NCBI GenBank assembly: GCA_016839405.1
Contig: JAEOUJ010000254.1
Location: 1 to 9,163, forward strand
DNA: 9,163 nucleotides
From: Candidatus Gerdarchaeota archaeon
Lineage (GTDB): Archaea > Asgardarchaeota > Heimdallarchaeia > JABLTI01
Direction: 5' to 3'
The position numbers and the translations under genes are program-made. Positions 2,588 through 7,996 of this stretch are shown piece by piece. Under the pieces are notes generated by a model. That model searched no databases and was not told the origin of the DNA. It saw nothing but the letters and a program-made list of their open reading frames with translations. The stretch's first letter is position 1. Every line of letters begins with the position of its first letter.

Positions 2588-3457
2588 TTGAAGCTACGAA
2601 GACCAATCCTCAAAAAGTTATTTAAAAATCAAAAAGCTGTATCACAAGTTTTAGCAGCAATGATGATGATCTTTTTGTTTATTACAGCAATAGCTGTTGT
2701 TTGGGCTTGGTTATATCCCACTTATCGACGATTTCAAACGACTAATACATTAAATACAATCACTTCTTATTTCTTAAGAATTGATGAATCCATTTATGAT
2801 TTGTATGGAGAAGGGCCTGGTTCTATTGAAACTATTAGAATAGATCCAACTTATGGGCGAGTTTTATATGAAGCAGGGAAAAATGCTACTTTACATTTTA
2901 GTGATGAAAATGGAGCCTATAGTCAAAATTATCTTTTCACGGAATTAGGAACATTAACCTATTTAATGCAAGGTAGACGTGGTGTTCTATTAAATGAAGG
3001 AGAACATCGTTACCTGAAGGGACCATCTCTTCAATCACATTTCTTTGTTAATGGATCTAATGATAATTTAGTCTATCAAGGTTTAACTAATCTAACTCTT
3101 TTACGACCTGAAGATAATACCATGCGTATTGAATTAGAGTACAGAGTTAGAATCTACTCATGGTTTGACCAAAATACAAATACTCTATCAATAATCGTTA
3201 ATATAATACAATTGGATATAAAAGGATTGGAGTTTGAATTTTTTAATACAAGAAGTTTGAAAATAACATTAAATTCAACAAGAGAAATTTATTTTGATAC
3301 TACAAATGTGGATTCCGATTTTTATGTTGATGGATCAATTGCACCAACAGGTTTTGATCCCTCAGAACGAGCATTATGGTTCGTTAAACCCGGTGCTATT
3401 GCCAATTATGATGTAAATATTCAAATTGTTCTATCACAATTCTTATTTTATTACTAG
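2588..3457 (+). CDS. Archaeal pilin-like (class III signal) exported protein, function unknown
   Basis: A 289-residue protein with a basic N-terminus (residues 1-16, many Lys/Arg), then KAVSQVLAAMMM opening a hydrophobic helix at about 17-42 that ends in WAWLYP. This is the pattern of archaeal type IV pilin/archaellin N-termini (compare the common archaeal form VSPVIA), in which a prepilin peptidase would cut near the Lys16-Ala17 boundary and the helix packs into a filament core or anchors the protein. The remainder is predicted extracytoplasmic, with many Asn, Thr, Tyr and short beta-like stretches; no enzyme motif or cysteine pair is visible. The TTG start is supported by GGAG at 2575-2578, 9 bases upstream; no ATG lies upstream, and the next ATGs fall inside the hydrophobic helix. 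It stands alone between flpA and eL42, with no pilus ATPase or platform protein in view, so assembly into a pilus is unproven. Confidence 0.75.
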   Translation: MKLRRPILKKLFKNQKAVSQVLAAMMMIFLFITAIAVVWAWLYPTYRRFQTTNTLNTITSYFLRIDESIYDLYGEGPGSIETIRIDPTYGRVLYEAGKNATLHFSDENGAYSQNYLFTELGTLTYLMQGRRGVLLNEGEHRYLKGPSLQSHFFVNGSNDNLVYQGLTNLTLLRPEDNTMRIELEYRVRIYSWFDQNTNTLSIIVNIIQLDIKGLEFEFFNTRSLKITLNSTREIYFDTTNVDSDFYVDGSIAPTGFDPSERALWFVKPGAIANYDVNIQIVLSQFLFYY

Positions 3458-5780: not shown

Positions 5781-6110
5781 TTAGCACCAAGTAATTACTT
5801 TCTCATATTTATCCATAATGATAGAAATTGCTTCATCATAATTTACTGGTTTAATATCAGGATGAATATTTGAACCAATTATACCTCTTGCATCTAGGTC
5901 TTCTTTAATAGCAAAAATTGTTGCACCATGAGATGCTGCTTCAGCGATAATATTTTGTCCACCTTTCCAACAAGCTAATGTGCTATCTTGAATTAAAAGA
6001 ATGCCTATTTCATGTCCTTTCTTTATTTGTGCTTTTGTTATATCAAGTAAAGTTCCTTGAGCAGCACAAGTGTAGATGCTTTTTGAAGTTATATACAAAA
6101 CTTTTGTCAC
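5781..6110 (-). CDS. tusB: TusB/DsrH-like sulfur relay protein
   Basis: A 109-residue DsrH/TusB-type subunit. Family features are the N-terminal strand VLYITSKS, IGILLIQDSTLACWKG, FAIKEDLDARGI, and the closing VNYDEAISIIMDKYEKVITW that is diagnostic of DsrH/TusB. In the TusBCD (DsrEFH) hexamer this subunit supports persulfide transfer. Cysteines are at 15, 47 and the final residue 109. None falls at the TusC/TusD active position, as expected for this subunit. The GTG start at 6110 is chosen because GGAGG (plus 6118-6122) lies 7 bases upstream; an ATG at 6143 would overlap tusC by 20 bases without a Shine-Dalgarno. The GGAGG lies just inside the tusC 3' end region, indicating translational coupling. 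Confidence 0.85.
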   Translation of the reverse strand: MTKVLYITSKSIYTCAAQGTLLDITKAQIKKGHEIGILLIQDSTLACWKGGQNIIAEAASHGATIFAIKEDLDARGIIGSNIHPDIKPVNYDEAISIIMDKYEKVITWC

Positions 6111-6123
6111 TTTTAATCCTCCA

Positions 6124-6483
6124 TTATAATGCAATGGTTGCATCTGCTTCCATCAATAAGTCACTTAATTCTTCTAATGAGATAATTTTTACTTCGAGTT
6201 TCGGATCAAGATCTTCTGCTTTAATTCCTCTTTGTTTTAAAGAAGCTTCACATGCAAAAATTGGTATATCAAATCTATGCATTGCTTCAAGAGCACCCAT
6301 TACTGAGTGATGGCCTATGCCATCTGGTTGTTGATCTTTAATTAGATTGAAAACACCATCATCAATGAATATAGCATCAGTTTCGACATCAAGAACTAAT
6401 AAACCTTGAGCAACACGAATTCCTTCTAAACTATTTATTTGGCCATAAGGTCCCTTGCGAAATAGTACAATTACTCGTTCCAT
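6124..6483 (-). CDS. tusC: TusC/DsrF-like sulfur relay protein
   Basis: A 119-residue DsrE-fold protein matching TusC/DsrF: RKGPYGQINSLEGIRVAQGL (usual form RKPPYGSxNAxEALRxALGL), IFIDDGVFNLIKDQQ, and FACEASLKQRGI. Cys78 sits at the usual DsrE-family active-site position. It is expected to form a hexamer with TusB and TusD that passes persulfide sulfur from TusA to an acceptor, for tRNA 2-thiouridine formation or sulfur oxidation depending on organism. GAGGTG (plus 6489-6494) overlaps the tusD stop codon and lies 5 bases before the ATG, so the two are translationally coupled. Confidence 0.88.
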   Translation of the reverse strand: MERVIVLFRKGPYGQINSLEGIRVAQGLLVLDVETDAIFIDDGVFNLIKDQQPDGIGHHSVMGALEAMHRFDIPIFACEASLKQRGIKAEDLDPKLEVKIISLEELSDLLMEADATIAL

Positions 6484-6492
6484 TTTAACACC

Positions 6493-6858
6493 TCAGGCAG
6501 TAAAAATTAAGATTCGATCAGAATCTTCAACAAATTCACTTAATGCTCCTAGACCATCAAAGTTAGTCCCTTCTACTAACATGTCTTTATTATGAGTTCC
6601 ACGGTATTCAGCACATATAGGGCATGCAACAATTGGGATGCCCTTATTTGCAAGTTCTTTGAATAGGTTAGCAATATTTCTATCCCTATCATCAGATGGC
6701 TTAATTGAATTTACATTATTATAAACACCATCCGTATAAAGATAAATTCCTGTGACTTCGTGACCTGCCTTAATAGCTGCTTGTACCAGTTTTATAACCG
6801 TATCAGAATTCTGAAAGCTATATGGGGAAGTCATTAATAGAAATGCTATTTTGCCCAT
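6493..6858 (-). CDS. tusD: TusD/DsrE-like sulfur relay protein
   Basis: A 121-residue DsrE-fold protein, first gene of the operon. It shows MGKIAFLLMTSPY, an alternating helix-strand core (AAIKAGHEVTGIYLYTDGVY) and VACPICAEYRGT, with Cys79 and Cys82. Cys79 aligns with the active Cys of TusD/DsrE (Cys78 in the well-studied proteins), which carries the persulfide. The C-terminus LGALSEFVEDSDRILIF is typical. I prefer the ATG at 6858 to the one at 6870: GGTGA lies 5 bases before the second ATG, whereas the first has no Shine-Dalgarno and adds only MVKL. The order tusD-tusC-tusB is the standard DsrE-F-H order. Confidence 0.87.
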   Translation of the reverse strand: MGKIAFLLMTSPYSFQNSDTVIKLVQAAIKAGHEVTGIYLYTDGVYNNVNSIKPSDDRDRNIANLFKELANKGIPIVACPICAEYRGTHNKDMLVEGTNFDGLGALSEFVEDSDRILIFTA

Positions 6859-6870
6859 TAATTTCACCAT

Positions 6871-7031
6871 TAAAATCTACATTAACAAAAAACTGTAGTA
6901 TCTGTATAAGTACAACGGTTTATAATCTAAATCTTTTTTTTAACTTTAGAAAATAAATGCTCAAATTTATTTTTATTATTAATTAATGAGGTATCTAGTT
7001 CAAACTATATTTTATAGGATTGATTAAAAAA
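6871..7031. promoter_or_regulatory. Divergent promoter region of the two sulfur-relay operons
   Basis: An AT-rich gap of about 160 bases between tusD (minus) and the DsrE2-like gene (plus). For tusD, the minus-strand ATTATAAA (plus 6919-6926) is the best TATA candidate, placing a start roughly 40 bases before the ATG. For the plus side, CTATATTTTATAGG (7005-7018) is TATA-like but very close to the ATG at 7032, so a short leader or another box is likely. No clear operator palindrome was found. Confidence 0.35.
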
Positions 7032-7451
7032 ATGACTGATAAAAAACGTGTGGCTATTGTTTGCCACTCAGGAACATTAGATAAGGTTTATCCAGTACTT
7101 ATGCTTGCCTCTGCAGGAGGCGCATCAGATATGGAAGTAGATATTTTCTTTACCTTTTGGGGATTAAATTTCCTCAAGAAGAAAGGTTTAAAGAAAGCAA
7201 AGCTTCCCGGTATTATGAGACCTTTCACACCTATGATGAAATGGAAAATTAAGAAAACTGGTATAGCCTCATTACCTGATCTATTAAAAATGACTTTAGA
7301 AACTGAAAATGTTAGATTATATGCATGTACTGCTACTATGGATATAATGAATGTTAAAAAAGAACAATTAATACCTGAAGTAGAAGGATTTATGGGTGCA
7401 GCTAGCTTTCTTGATATTGCATCAGAATGTGATGTACAATTATTCATTTAA
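7032..7451 (+). CDS. DsrE2-like (DsrE/DsrF/DrsH-type) sulfur transfer protein
   Basis: A 139-residue member of the DsrE-superfamily group often annotated DsrE/DsrF/DrsH-like or peroxiredoxin-like. It shows VAIVCHSGTLDKVYPVLMLA, FFTFWGLNFLKKKG, and YACTATMDIMNV, with Cys99 at the position used for sulfur transfer; Cys11 is a second conserved-looking cysteine. The basic segment LKKAKLPGIMRPFTPMMKWK is typical of this group. In sulfur oxidisers and many archaea it occurs beside tusA, and TusA-DsrE2 sulfur exchange has been described there. The start at ATG 7032 is preferred to TTG 7020, which lacks a ribosome binding site; GGAT at 7017-7020 is a weak one for the ATG. tusA follows after 12 bases. 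Confidence 0.87.
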   Translation: MTDKKRVAIVCHSGTLDKVYPVLMLASAGGASDMEVDIFFTFWGLNFLKKKGLKKAKLPGIMRPFTPMMKWKIKKTGIASLPDLLKMTLETENVRLYACTATMDIMNVKKEQLIPEVEGFMGAASFLDIASECDVQLFI

Positions 7452-7463
7452 GAGTTGATTTAA

Positions 7464-7706
7464 ATGGCTGATATACCAAAAGCAGATAAAACATTTGATG
7501 CCCGTGGATTGCAATGCCCGGTACCAATATTAAAAGCTAAAAAGCAAATTCAAACATTAGAAATTGATCAAATCTTAGAAGTTTTATCCACTGATCCTGG
7601 TTCAAAAGAAGACTTCCCAAGATGGTGTAAACGTACCGGCAATGAATTACTAGGTATTTTCGATGAGGAAGATTATGCTCGATATTTCATTAAGAGAAAA
7701 GCATAA
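7464..7706 (+). CDS. tusA: TusA-family sulfur carrier
   Basis: An 80-residue sulfur carrier with the hallmark ARGLQCPVPILKAKK: Cys18 in the CPxP motif at the start of helix 1 carries the persulfide. TDPGSKEDFPRWCKRTGNEL matches the second conserved block, including a second Cys in WCK. It probably shuttles sulfur between the DsrE2-like protein and TusBCD or another acceptor. It is encoded 12 bases after the DsrE2-like gene and is certainly in one transcript with it. The ribosome binding site is weak (GAGTTGAT, 7452-7459). No cysteine desulfurase or TusE/DsrC is encoded in the window. Confidence 0.95.
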   Translation: MADIPKADKTFDARGLQCPVPILKAKKQIQTLEIDQILEVLSTDPGSKEDFPRWCKRTGNELLGIFDEEDYARYFIKRKA

Positions 7707-7717: not shown

Positions 7718-7767
7718 CCCTTCTATTTTTCATTTAATTGTCTCTTTTTGATTTTCCCACAAAAAGG

Positions 7768-7780
7768 CAAACTTTAAAAG
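7768..7780 (+). promoter_or_regulatory. Candidate TATA box/BRE of the permuted 5S rRNA gene
   Basis: TTTAAAAG (7773-7780), preceded by the purine-rich CAAAC (7768-7772), resembles an archaeal BRE plus TATA box. A start about 25-27 bases downstream falls near 7800-7805, just before the flanking stem begins at 7810, which is where a short precursor should start. Confidence 0.5.
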
Positions 7781-7809
7781 TAGAAAGGTAAACGAAAAAA
7801 CTACAAACA

Positions 7810-7958
7810 AAAACCAACCGCCGGAAGTTAAGCCTCTATACGTTATGATAATTACTGATCTGAGTGATCGTTCGGGAACATCATAAAGCTGCGTTGCGAC
7901 GCGGTCAAAGCTAGAGGGTAACACCCGGACCCGTCCGATCCCGGAAACGGTTGGTTTT
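7810..7958 (+). other. Precursor stem and bulge-helix-bulge splice motif enclosing the permuted 5S
   Basis: The 5' arm AAAACCAACCG (7810-7820) pairs perfectly over 11 bp with CGGTTGGTTTT (7948-7958). Inside it come a 3-nt bulge AAA (7945-7947) on the 3' strand, a 4-bp helix CCGG (7821-7824) with CCGG (7941-7944), and a 3-nt bulge AAG (7825-7827) on the 5' strand. This is the 3-4-3 layout recognised by archaeal tRNA splicing endonuclease; the inner helix beyond the second bulge is not formed, so it is a relaxed motif. Cutting after base 2 of each bulge (after 7826 and after 7946) frees a 120-nt RNA whose ends, when joined, restore the canonical 5S sequence. The joined flanks would form a small hairpin. 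Confidence 0.8.
7827..7946 (+). rRNA. rrf: Circularly permuted 5S rRNA (3' half before 5' half)
   Basis: The complete 5S secondary structure can be drawn, but in rotated order. Helix II is CCTCTA (7833-7838) with TAGAGG (7912-7917). Helix V is TTATGAT (7843-7849) with ATCATAA (7880-7886). Helix IV is GATC/GATC (7857-7860, 7866-7869). The loop E 3' side CGGGAAC is at 7873-7879. Helix I is GCTGCGT (7888-7894) with ACGCGGT (7899-7905), closed by loop TGCG where the normal ends would be. Loop A is CAAAGC. Helix III is CCGG (7925-7928) with CCGG (7941-7944), plus the AA bulge and the pairs G7827-C7924 and U7828-A7923, formed across the new junction. Loop C is ACCCGTCCGATC. The segment AAGTTAAGCC (7825-7834) is the universal 5S signature. 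Because CCGGAA occurs at both 7821-7826 and 7941-7946, the circle sequence is the same wherever within it the ends are cut. Size is 120 nt, the normal 5S length. GC is about 52% (74 of 141 bases over 7814-7954), well above the AT-rich flanks. Confidence 0.9.
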
Positions 7959-7996
7959 GTGTTTCCCTTTTATAATCTTTTTTTGTATTATTTTTG
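7955..7996 (+). terminator. T-rich terminator of the 5S unit
   Basis: After the flanking stem come TTTT (7955-7958), CCCTTTT, a run of seven T (7978-7984) and TTTTTG (7991-7996). Serial oligo-T tracts are the usual archaeal termination signal. Together with the TATA-like box they make the 5S a free-standing transcription unit. The rest of the gap, to 8079, is AT-rich and shows nothing definite apart from AAGGT (8068-8072) ahead of the next GTG start. Confidence 0.6.

What the first reader, a model, noticed from the sequence alone, without database searches (positions are those of the whole stretch)
7810..7958. A circularly permuted 5S rRNA gene in an archaeon
All 5S helices I-V and the signature segments (AAGUUAAGCC, CGGGAAC, CAAAGC) are present, but the 3' half lies upstream of the 5' half. 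Base pairing is complementary in every helix, including helix II and helix III, whose strands are joined in the rotated order, so this is not a degenerate or rearranged pseudogene. Permuted 5S genes are known in some algal/protist mitochondria, and permuted tRNA genes are known in archaea and algae. I know of no archaeal permuted 5S. Standard linear covariance models would miss or truncate it, so the genome may be listed as lacking 5S.
Basis: partly seen in the sequence, partly recalled or inferred. Interest (0 to 1): 0.97.

Follow-up and report, generated by a model that had tools for sequence, protein, structure and literature searches.

The report
Scrambled 5S rRNA gene in Asgard archaea
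This archaeal DNA carries a 5S ribosomal RNA gene with its two halves in swapped order, the same arrangement shows up in about 60% of 227 genomes of its likely Asgard phylum, where an ordinary 5S gene is then usually not found, and the RNA is predicted to be cut out and likely joined into a circle by the tRNA-splicing enzymes.

Summary
Window 7810-7958 holds every 5S rRNA helix, with the 3' half upstream of the 5' half. A covariance model built only from rotated copies of such genes finds 32 of 32 ordinary 5S genes of the same phylum full length (60.9-100.7 bits); the unrotated model gives them at most 32.5. The element is conserved in 9 of 96 close relatives and matches at E <= 1e-9 in 138 of 227 genomes of the phylum. 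Only 5 of the 138 also hold an RF00001 match over cut-off, one of them an archaeal linear 5S.

Cutting both bulges at the usual place and ligating would give a 120-nt circle with an exact 5S junction. The BHB arms match their own partners across genomes (12.3) and not swapped ones (2.5). Best mechanism: excision as a circle by tRNA-splicing endonuclease plus ligase. No RNA data were available; expression and circularity are inferred, and arms kept as an expansion stem remain a serious rival. I found no report of it in the searches made.

The parts
7766..7779 (+). BRE/TATA-like promoter element GGCAAACTTTAAAA, about 40 nt upstream of the BHB; a transcription start near 7803 is inferred
   Evidence: The same element with 0-2 changed bases at nearly the same distance in 9 of 9 close relatives. 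That it is a promoter is inferred from the archaeal BRE/TATA consensus (recalled).
7810..7820 (+). 5' arm of the outer helix (leader, predicted to be removed)
   Evidence: 11 bp with 7948-7958; 9 of 11 pairs change on both sides across 12 sequences
7821..7827 (+). 5' strand of the BHB: CCGG (4-bp helix) + bulge AAG; predicted cut between 7826 and 7827
   Evidence: 3-4-3 BHB geometry found by pairing alone; fold with this helix forced -51.1 against free MFE -52.9 kcal/mol
7827..7946 (+). 120-nt permuted 5S rRNA unit (predicted circle)
   Evidence: 120 nt in 12 of 12 sequences of alignment A1; minimum-free-energy fold of the closed circle is the 5S structure
7833..7838 (+). Helix II, 3' strand (pairs with 7912-7917)
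   Evidence: 5 of 6 pairs change on both sides
7843..7886 (+). Helices V and IV with the loop E region (CGGGAAC)
   Evidence: 6 pairs with double changes in the two helices
7888..7905 (+). Helix I as a closed hairpin GCTGCGT-TGCG-ACGCGGT; in an ordinary gene the two strands are the RNA's ends
   Evidence: 3 of 7 stem pairs change on both sides; by script a 4-nt loop in 103 of 140 hairpins found in 143 rows, UUCG, UGCG or UACG in 75
7906..7928 (+). Loop A, helix II 5' strand, loop B and helix III 5' strand (CCGG 7925-7928)
   Evidence: Alignment and fold
7929..7944 (+). Loop C and helix III 3' strand CCGG (7941-7944), which is also the 3' strand of the BHB central helix
7945..7947 (+). 3' bulge AAA of the BHB; predicted cut between 7946 and 7947, giving junction CCGATCCCGGAA|GTTAAGCC
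7948..7958 (+). 3' arm of the outer helix (trailer, predicted to be removed)
   Evidence: Pairs with 7810-7820
7978..7984 (+). T run downstream, a possible terminator
   Evidence: Sequence; function inferred

Best explanation
Window 7827-7946 carries the sequence of a 5S rRNA gene with its 3' half upstream of its 5' half, and its transcript is predicted to be cut at a bulge-helix-bulge by tRNA-splicing endonuclease and likely ligated into a 120-nt circular 5S rRNA. Shown by sequence: the permuted order; all 5S helices, with compensatory changes in I, II, IV and V; a short hairpin loop that closes helix I; and complementary leader and trailer arms that can form an outer helix, a 4-bp helix and two 3-nt bulges. 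Also shown: splicing by the usual rule (cut after the second bulge nucleotide on each strand) would restore an exact 5S loop-C/helix-III junction. Inferred: transcription from the conserved TATA-like element, cleavage by the endonuclease, ligation by RtcB, and use of the closed circle (or of a product reopened elsewhere) as the ribosome's 5S rRNA. The logic is that of archaeal 16S/23S circular processing and of permuted tRNA genes: the RNA sits in the 'intron' place of a BHB, so its own halves can lie in either order.
For: Permuted order and 5S identity. BHB: by pairing alone, 60 of 134 hits gave a unit of 110-160 nt whose junction passed the filter and opens with the GUUAA motif (the 134 include 3 linear loci). 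With junctions anchored on 5S motifs, 119 of 143 rows could be anchored, giving 94 distinct arm pairs; the mean outer-arm score is 12.3 against 2.5 for permuted partners (maximum of 10,000 permutations 4.03; related genomes are not corrected for), and 50 of 94 lie above the 95th percentile of swapped pairs. In that test 86 of 94 have at least 3 of 4 central pairs, but central pairing was used to choose the register, so this is not independent. In the 12 sequences of A1 the 5' CCGG copy drifts (CTGG in L005 and L008) while the 3' copy stays CCGG, as expected if only the 3' copy is kept. Enzymes: splicing endonuclease PF01974 in 10 of 10 and RtcB PF01139 in 8 of 10 genomes of relatives examined. 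In six loci with another breakpoint the same rule, read by eye, again gives a 5S-like junction (L219, L221-L225). An E. coli 5S with ends joined by 4 nt and opened in loop C, placed in 23S H84, supports growth without free 5S (PMC7283268; abstract, one section and passages), so this permuted topology can work.
Against: No transcript, junction read or ribosome was available. The predicted junction lies at the conserved bulge of helix III, which PMC7812874 names among the least obstructed places for an insertion and where an insertion is kept in one bacterial 5S (passages); so the arms could be kept. The free fold of the window transcript prefers pairing the 5' CCGG with helix III's other strand by 1.8 kcal/mol, as does RNAalifold; my hand-drawn BHB structure scored 11.5 worse. 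The inner helix of the BHB is short. The circle's folding energy is not unusual (z = -0.8; 67 of 300 shuffles fold as well). RtcB was not found in G002 or in G022, whose one contig is nearly its whole genome. In L075-L079 the central helix has 3 of 4 pairs. 24 of 143 rows could not be anchored, and many anchored rows from clades with extra inserts have arm scores near 0. The window's own genome could not be searched.
Confidence: 0.75

Rival explanations
1. A permuted 5S rRNA that stays linear: the arms are kept as an expansion stem at the helix III bulge, or are trimmed by other nucleases, with no splicing and no circle.
For: The free minimum-energy fold is a long continuous stem on the 5S core. 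[quoted passage not shown]
Against: The 3-4-3 BHB geometry with a 5S-exact junction recurs with unrelated arm sequences. Repeats of CCGGAA at both ends make sense for splicing, not for a plain stem. Some genes open elsewhere in loop C.
Confidence: 0.2
2. The gene is permuted and circularised, but the circle is reopened at helix I so that the mature RNA is an ordinary linear 5S (a sub-case of the best explanation).
For: 16S and 23S circles of archaea are widely believed to be re-linearised (PMC12918454, abstract start and passages). Permuted tRNAs are reopened by RNase P and tRNase Z (recalled). tRNase Z matures the 5S 5' end in Haloferax (PMC7714728, passage).
Against: Helix I is capped by short loops, UUCG, UGCG or UACG in 75 of 140, which leaves little to remove. 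Circular 23S is reported inside archaeal ribosomes (PMC12918454, title and passages).
Confidence: 0.25
3. A degenerate 5S copy or a regulatory RNA that resembles 5S, while an ordinary gene serves the ribosome.
For: The window's own genome is not held, so an ordinary gene there cannot be excluded. G055 has both a permuted and a linear-order 5S.
Against: 23 of 44 pairs with double changes. In 137 of 138 genomes with the permuted gene, RF00001 gives no archaeal match over cut-off in ordinary order (that three of the five matches are bacterial-like and one is the permuted gene itself was judged by eye). Ordinary genes were found in 65 of 65 out-of-phylum genomes tested, but these were picked for having a weak model hit, so that contrast is not blind.
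Confidence: 0.02
4. Artefact: a read-through of tandem ordinary 5S genes, or a misassembly.
For: Tandem ordinary 5S genes do give hits with the permuted model (G291 and G349: 51.7 and 51.1 bits).
Against: Units with short helix I loops and private, complementary arms occur in many separate assemblies (94 distinct arm pairs), some of them contigs as long as the stated genome (G020, G022, G026, G028, G061).
Confidence: 0.01

Closest known systems
Permuted organelle-encoded 5S rRNAs (Valach et al. 2014; seen only as a citation in PMC10085705; the paper is not held)
   Same: 5S rRNA with rotated order
   Different: Organellar, not in a cell's own genome; I know of no BHB there (recalled, not checked)
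Circularly permuted tRNA genes of archaea and red algae (recalled; Soma et al. 2007 seen only as a reference)
   Same: Halves reversed, BHB at the ends, circular intermediate (there observed, here predicted)
   Different: 5S rRNA, not tRNA; the closed end is a short hairpin loop with no known end-processing site
Archaeal 16S/23S maturation by BHB excision and circularisation; circularly permuted 23S of Pyrococcus furiosus (PMC7758197, passages; PMC12918454, passages)
   Same: RNA in the intron place of a BHB, cut by splicing endonuclease and ligated into a circle
   Different: The genes themselves are in normal order; PMC12918454 says processing of 16S and 23S, but not 5S, often involves circularisation
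Circular 5S isoforms in Halobacterium salinarum and Sulfolobus (PMC12558985, passages)
   Same: Circular RNAs with 5S sequence
   Different: Variable ends, from 5S in those species; the authors suggest a part in degradation
Engineered circularly permuted 5S in E. coli 23S-cp5S (PMC7283268; abstract, one section, passages)
   Same: Native ends joined by a 4-nt connector, opened in loop C (construct CH84), supports growth
   Different: Man-made and fused into 23S rRNA; the abstract reports aberrant 50S subunits in such cells
5S expansion segments, e.g. at the helix III bulge (PMC7812874, passages)
   Same: Extra stem rooted at the place where these genes open
   Different: There the 5S halves are in normal order and the insert is internal

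Membership tests
5S rRNA (RF00001) | Helices I-V of the three-way junction, with the conserved segments | tested here: met
5S rRNA (RF00001) | Scores as 5S with the Rfam model in normal order | tested here: not met
   No hit in the window; two side-by-side sub-threshold matches, 23.9 and 16.7 bits, in relative G001. Expected for a permuted gene
5S rRNA (RF00001) | Homology to ordinary 5S genes once rotated | tested here: met
   HMM test 60 of 60; rotated-model test 32 of 32. RF00001 itself on the rotated letters could not be run
5S rRNA (RF00001) | Sits in the large ribosomal subunit | not testable with these tools
   No RNA or ribosome data
BHB-processed permuted RNA gene | 3' half upstream of 5' half, native ends joined by a short linker | tested here: met
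BHB-processed permuted RNA gene | Bulge-helix-bulge of 3-4-3 nucleotides at the gene ends whose cutting restores the mature sequence | tested here: met
   Sequence and pairing; BHB definition from PMC7714728 (passage). Not the lowest-energy fold
BHB-processed permuted RNA gene | Splicing endonuclease and ligase present | tested here: inconclusive
   PF01974 in 10 of 10, PF01139 in 8 of 10 genomes of relatives; window genome not held
BHB-processed permuted RNA gene | Circular RNA intermediate observed | not testable with these tools
   No RNA data
Organellar permuted 5S | Encoded in a mitochondrial or plastid genome | tested here: not met
   Window codes archaeal Nop5-type, fibrillarin and L44 proteins; fibrillarin 80% identical to a Heimdallarchaeota MAG
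5S expansion segment | Insert inside a 5S of normal order | tested here: not met
   Order is rotated; whether the arms are kept like an expansion stem was not testable

The most novel reading that the evidence does not exclude
[quoted passage not shown] The gene was opened at more than one place in 5S, and a linear 5S with a BHB-like insert at the same site (L233) marks the route by which permutation arose.
Probability: 0.48. Interest if true: 0.98.

Novelty: new variant of a known kind. Interest (0 to 1): 0.95.

Why it matters
As far as I know, 5S rRNA genes of cellular genomes had only been described in one order; permuted ones were known from organelles. This would explain why 5S could not be predicted in the closed Heimdallarchaeum genomes, and it shows that the standard Rfam model misses a core ribosomal gene in most sampled genomes of a phylum. 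It adds characters (permuted or linear, breakpoint, inserts) for tracing Asgard evolution and its link to eukaryotes, whose 5S is linear (recalled). It predicts a natural circular rRNA made by tRNA-splicing enzymes, directly testable in Asgard cultures and metatranscriptomes.

Tried and rejected
Tandem or misassembled ordinary 5S: rejected (units with private complementary arms in many assemblies). Degenerate copy: judged very unlikely from covariation and conservation. Permuted 5S outside the phylum: the three strongest out-of-phylum hits of R2 (G291, G349, G298) are ordinary linear 5S. Of 165 out-of-phylum genomes searched, 98 have an R2 hit at E <= 0.01; 65 of these 98 were checked with RF00001 and all 65 hold an ordinary gene over cut-off; the other 33, and the 67 without a hit, were not checked.

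That handles G001-G227 are the 227 phylum genomes and G228-G392 lie outside is read from the handle numbering. That the phylum is Asgard rests on the record title of L001 (Candidatus Heimdallarchaeota), which NCBI places in Promethearchaeati. G061 is called Odinarchaeum LCB_4 only because its contig is 1,418,269 bp and that genome is 1.418 Mbp. G020 (3,326,783 bp) is near the 3.32 Mbp of Ca. H. endolithica, not proven.

A first alignment mixed strands and was redone. The motif-anchored BHB scripts mis-anchor clades with extra inserts; the blind one finds false optima in some loci. An argument that long arms would clash with H84 was dropped when PMC7812874 was read again; for that reason confidence in splicing was lowered from 0.82 to 0.75, the kept-arms rival was raised from 0.10 to 0.20, and the novel case was lowered from 0.55 to 0.48. 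Rows dropped before counts: 11 rows of nine loci (L226, L227, L228, L230, L233, L038, L034, L036, L229; linear, out-of-phylum or differently permuted) were left out of 154, leaving the 143, in which some genomes appear twice; L037 and L194 (bacterial-like 5S) were left out of the 34 linear sequences, leaving 32.

Full report
What was claimed and what is there. The finding places a circularly permuted 5S rRNA gene at 7810-7958. The sequence shows the three named signatures in the stated order. Rfam finds nothing in the window at E <= 1 and ARAGORN no tRNA. The window is archaeal: ten of its ORFs were scanned and nine match Pfam families, among them SIR2, Nop/Nop5, fibrillarin, L44, PAC2, an Mrp-like ParA, DrsE_2, TusA and ZnuA. 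Its fibrillarin is 80% identical to one from 'Candidatus Heimdallarchaeota archaeon isolate MAG_147' (L001), whose genome became handle G001.

Is it more than chance? The element was found at 86-92% identity in 9 of 96 relatives of G001 (G001-G009), and more weakly in G022 (69%, E 7.6e-7) and G026 (67%, E 0.02) in the same order. The 12 aligned sequences keep 98.9% of the cells of 44 pairs; 23 pairs change on both sides and 0 of 500 shuffles reach that. I drew that structure with the alignment in view. RNAalifold on its own finds the outer helix and helices I, II, IV and V, but pairs the 5' CCGG with helix III's 5' strand in place of the BHB. Helix III and the BHB centre hardly vary in the 12, so they are not tested by covariation there.

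Is it 5S? An HMM trained on 32 ordinary linear 5S genes of the phylum scores the window unit 24.6 bits as it lies and 60.5 when opened at the helix I loop. 60 of 60 units tested (selected from 134 hits by a BHB and junction filter) score higher rotated, in nearly all with the best opening at or near the helix I loop. A covariance model R3 made from 20 rotated units (opening points chosen with that HMM) finds 32 of 32 ordinary genes of the phylum at 60.9-100.7 bits and 3 out-of-phylum loci at 64.9-103.5, full length. The unrotated R2 gives the 32 at most 32.5 bits and the three 48.2-51.7. The window scores 151.9 with R2 and 56.9 with R3. RF00001 itself sees only split parts, for example 23.9 and 16.7 bits side by side in G001, under its cut-off of 38.

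How it probably works. The ends of the gene can form an 11-bp outer helix, then a 4-bp helix CCGG/CCGG with a 3-nt bulge on each strand (AAG, AAA): the bulge-helix-bulge recognised by archaeal splicing endonucleases (PMC7714728, passage). Cutting after the second bulge nucleotide on both strands and joining gives CCGATCCCGGAA|GTTAAGCC, the ordinary 5S sequence, and a unit of 120 nt in 12 of 12 sequences of A1; in other lineages it ranges from about 115 nt to about 155 nt where there are extra inserts. A search by pairing alone gave a filter-passing junction in 60 of 134 hits. In the motif-anchored test 119 of 143 rows were anchored, with 94 distinct arm pairs. The arms match their own partners (mean 12.3) and not permuted ones (2.5; maximum of 10,000 permutations 4.03), and 50 of 94 lie above the 95th percentile of swapped pairs. 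86 of 94 have 3 or 4 central pairs, but that was part of the choice of register. The low scorers are mostly clades with extra inserts, which the script mis-anchors. Relatedness of genomes is not corrected for. With the BHB forced, the window transcript folds at -51.1 against -52.9 kcal/mol for the free fold. The closed circle's best fold is the 5S structure, although its energy is not unusual (z -0.8).

Helix I is a closed hairpin in 140 of 143 rows by script. The loop is 4 nt in 103, and UUCG, UGCG or UACG in 75; 11 rows were given 27-nt loops, most of them probably mis-assigned. A BRE/TATA-like element GGCAAACTTTAAAA lies upstream in the window and, with 0-2 changes, in 9 of 9 close relatives. 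Splicing endonuclease is in 10 of 10 and RtcB in 8 of 10 genomes examined. Transcription, cutting, ligation and use in the ribosome are inferred; no RNA was seen. [quoted passage not shown]

Spread. With the 12-sequence model R1, 134 of 227 genomes of the phylum match at E <= 0.01. With R2, 151 match at E <= 0.01 and 138 at E <= 1e-9; the 13 weaker ones are mostly genomes with a linear gene. RF00001 finds a match over cut-off in 64 of 227 (strict filters). Five genomes are in both sets. By eye, G024, G130 and G153 hold bacterial-like 5S, likely contamination; in G027 the match covers the permuted gene; G055 has a linear-order 5S with an insert at the permutation site that reads as a BHB intron (L233) but could be an expansion segment. 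59 genomes are linear only and 30 are neither. Of the 30, RF00001 gives weak matches in 3, of which G107 and G139 look permuted by eye. G061, a single 1,418,269-bp contig, matches the closed Ca. Odinarchaeum yellowstonii LCB_4 genome in size (PMC9246712 passage) and has the BHB GGTAGTATCG-CGTG-AAA / CACG-GAA-CGATACTACC (L094). Outside the phylum the model's top three hits are ordinary genes, and 65 of 65 genomes checked (of 98 with a hit, of 165 searched) hold an ordinary 5S.

More than one breakpoint (read by eye). In G120, G137, G138, G141, G143 and G144 (L219, L221-L225) the gene opens on the 5' side of loop C; in L221 the BHB rule gives ACCCGGTC|CCATCCGAACCCGG. In G107 (L229) it opens just before helix III. 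Two clades (L104, L106-L109 and others; L173-L191) have extra inserts that can be drawn as BHB introns whose removal restores the 5S sequence. These suggest that permutation and BHB introns in 5S are linked, as proposed for permuted tRNAs (recalled).

Against prior work. Permuted 5S is known in organelles (Valach 2014, seen only as cited in PMC10085705). The closed Heimdallarchaeum genome paper says 5S could not be predicted by existing HMMs (PMC8813620, passages). A 2026 paper says processing of 16S and 23S, but not 5S, often involves circularisation in archaea (PMC12918454, passages). In E. coli a 5S with joined ends opened in loop C supports growth inside 23S (PMC7283268). Full-text searches for 'circularly permuted 5S' and 'permuted 5S' gave 0 papers. 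The passages I read report no permuted archaeal 5S gene; the other papers were seen as listings only, some lists being cut. The library holds open-licence papers only, so a report elsewhere cannot be excluded.

Verdict. That the permuted gene is real and conserved in much of the phylum I put at about 0.98. BHB excision as a circle is the best mechanism (0.75, lowered from 0.82 on checking PMC7812874). That most Asgard ribosomes hold the closed circle I put at about 0.48.

Noticed in passing
L233 (G055:C117), minus strand about 978-1115: A linear-order 5S gene with a roughly 23-nt insert that reads as a BHB intron (CACG-GAA ... CGTG-AAA) at the site where other genes are permuted; a possible ancestor-like state, or an expansion segment. 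G055 also holds permuted copies.
   Followed up: partly
L229/L248 (G107:C63), minus strand: A 5S permuted at a different breakpoint, just 5' of helix III (by eye).
   Followed up: partly
L219, L221-L225 (G120, G143, G144, G137, G138, G141): Permuted 5S opened on the 5' side of loop C; a BHB can again be drawn (by eye).
   Followed up: partly
L104, L106-L109, L114 and relatives: About 32-nt hairpin insert between the outer helix and the 5S start; can be drawn as a second BHB intron.
   Followed up: partly
L173-L191: About 30-nt insert in loop C that can be drawn as a BHB intron (TCCG-AAA ... CGGG-AAC).
   Followed up: partly
L083 (G034:C510) 1501-1650 and 1658-1807: Two adjacent permuted 5S genes with different arms but similar cores.
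   Followed up: no
L252 (G215:C15): A linear 5S with a roughly 34-nt insertion after GTTAA, maybe an intron or expansion segment.
   Followed up: no
L152, L160, L164, L167, L169, L170, L188: Permuted 5S genes with extra inserts in helix IV, the helix III/loop C region or helix I (by eye).
   Followed up: no
G024:C310, G130:C68, G153:C263 (L037, L194, L247): Bacterial-like 5S genes in draft genomes of the phylum, likely contaminating contigs (by eye).
   Followed up: partly
window 2588-3457: 289-aa protein with an N-terminal hydrophobic segment and no Pfam match at E <= 0.001, between the fibrillarin and L44 genes.
   Followed up: no
window 5781-7706: Run of small ORFs beside an Mrp-like ATPase; 7020-7451 is DsrE-like and 7464-7706 TusA-like; the minus-strand ORFs at 5781-6870 were not tested.
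   Followed up: no
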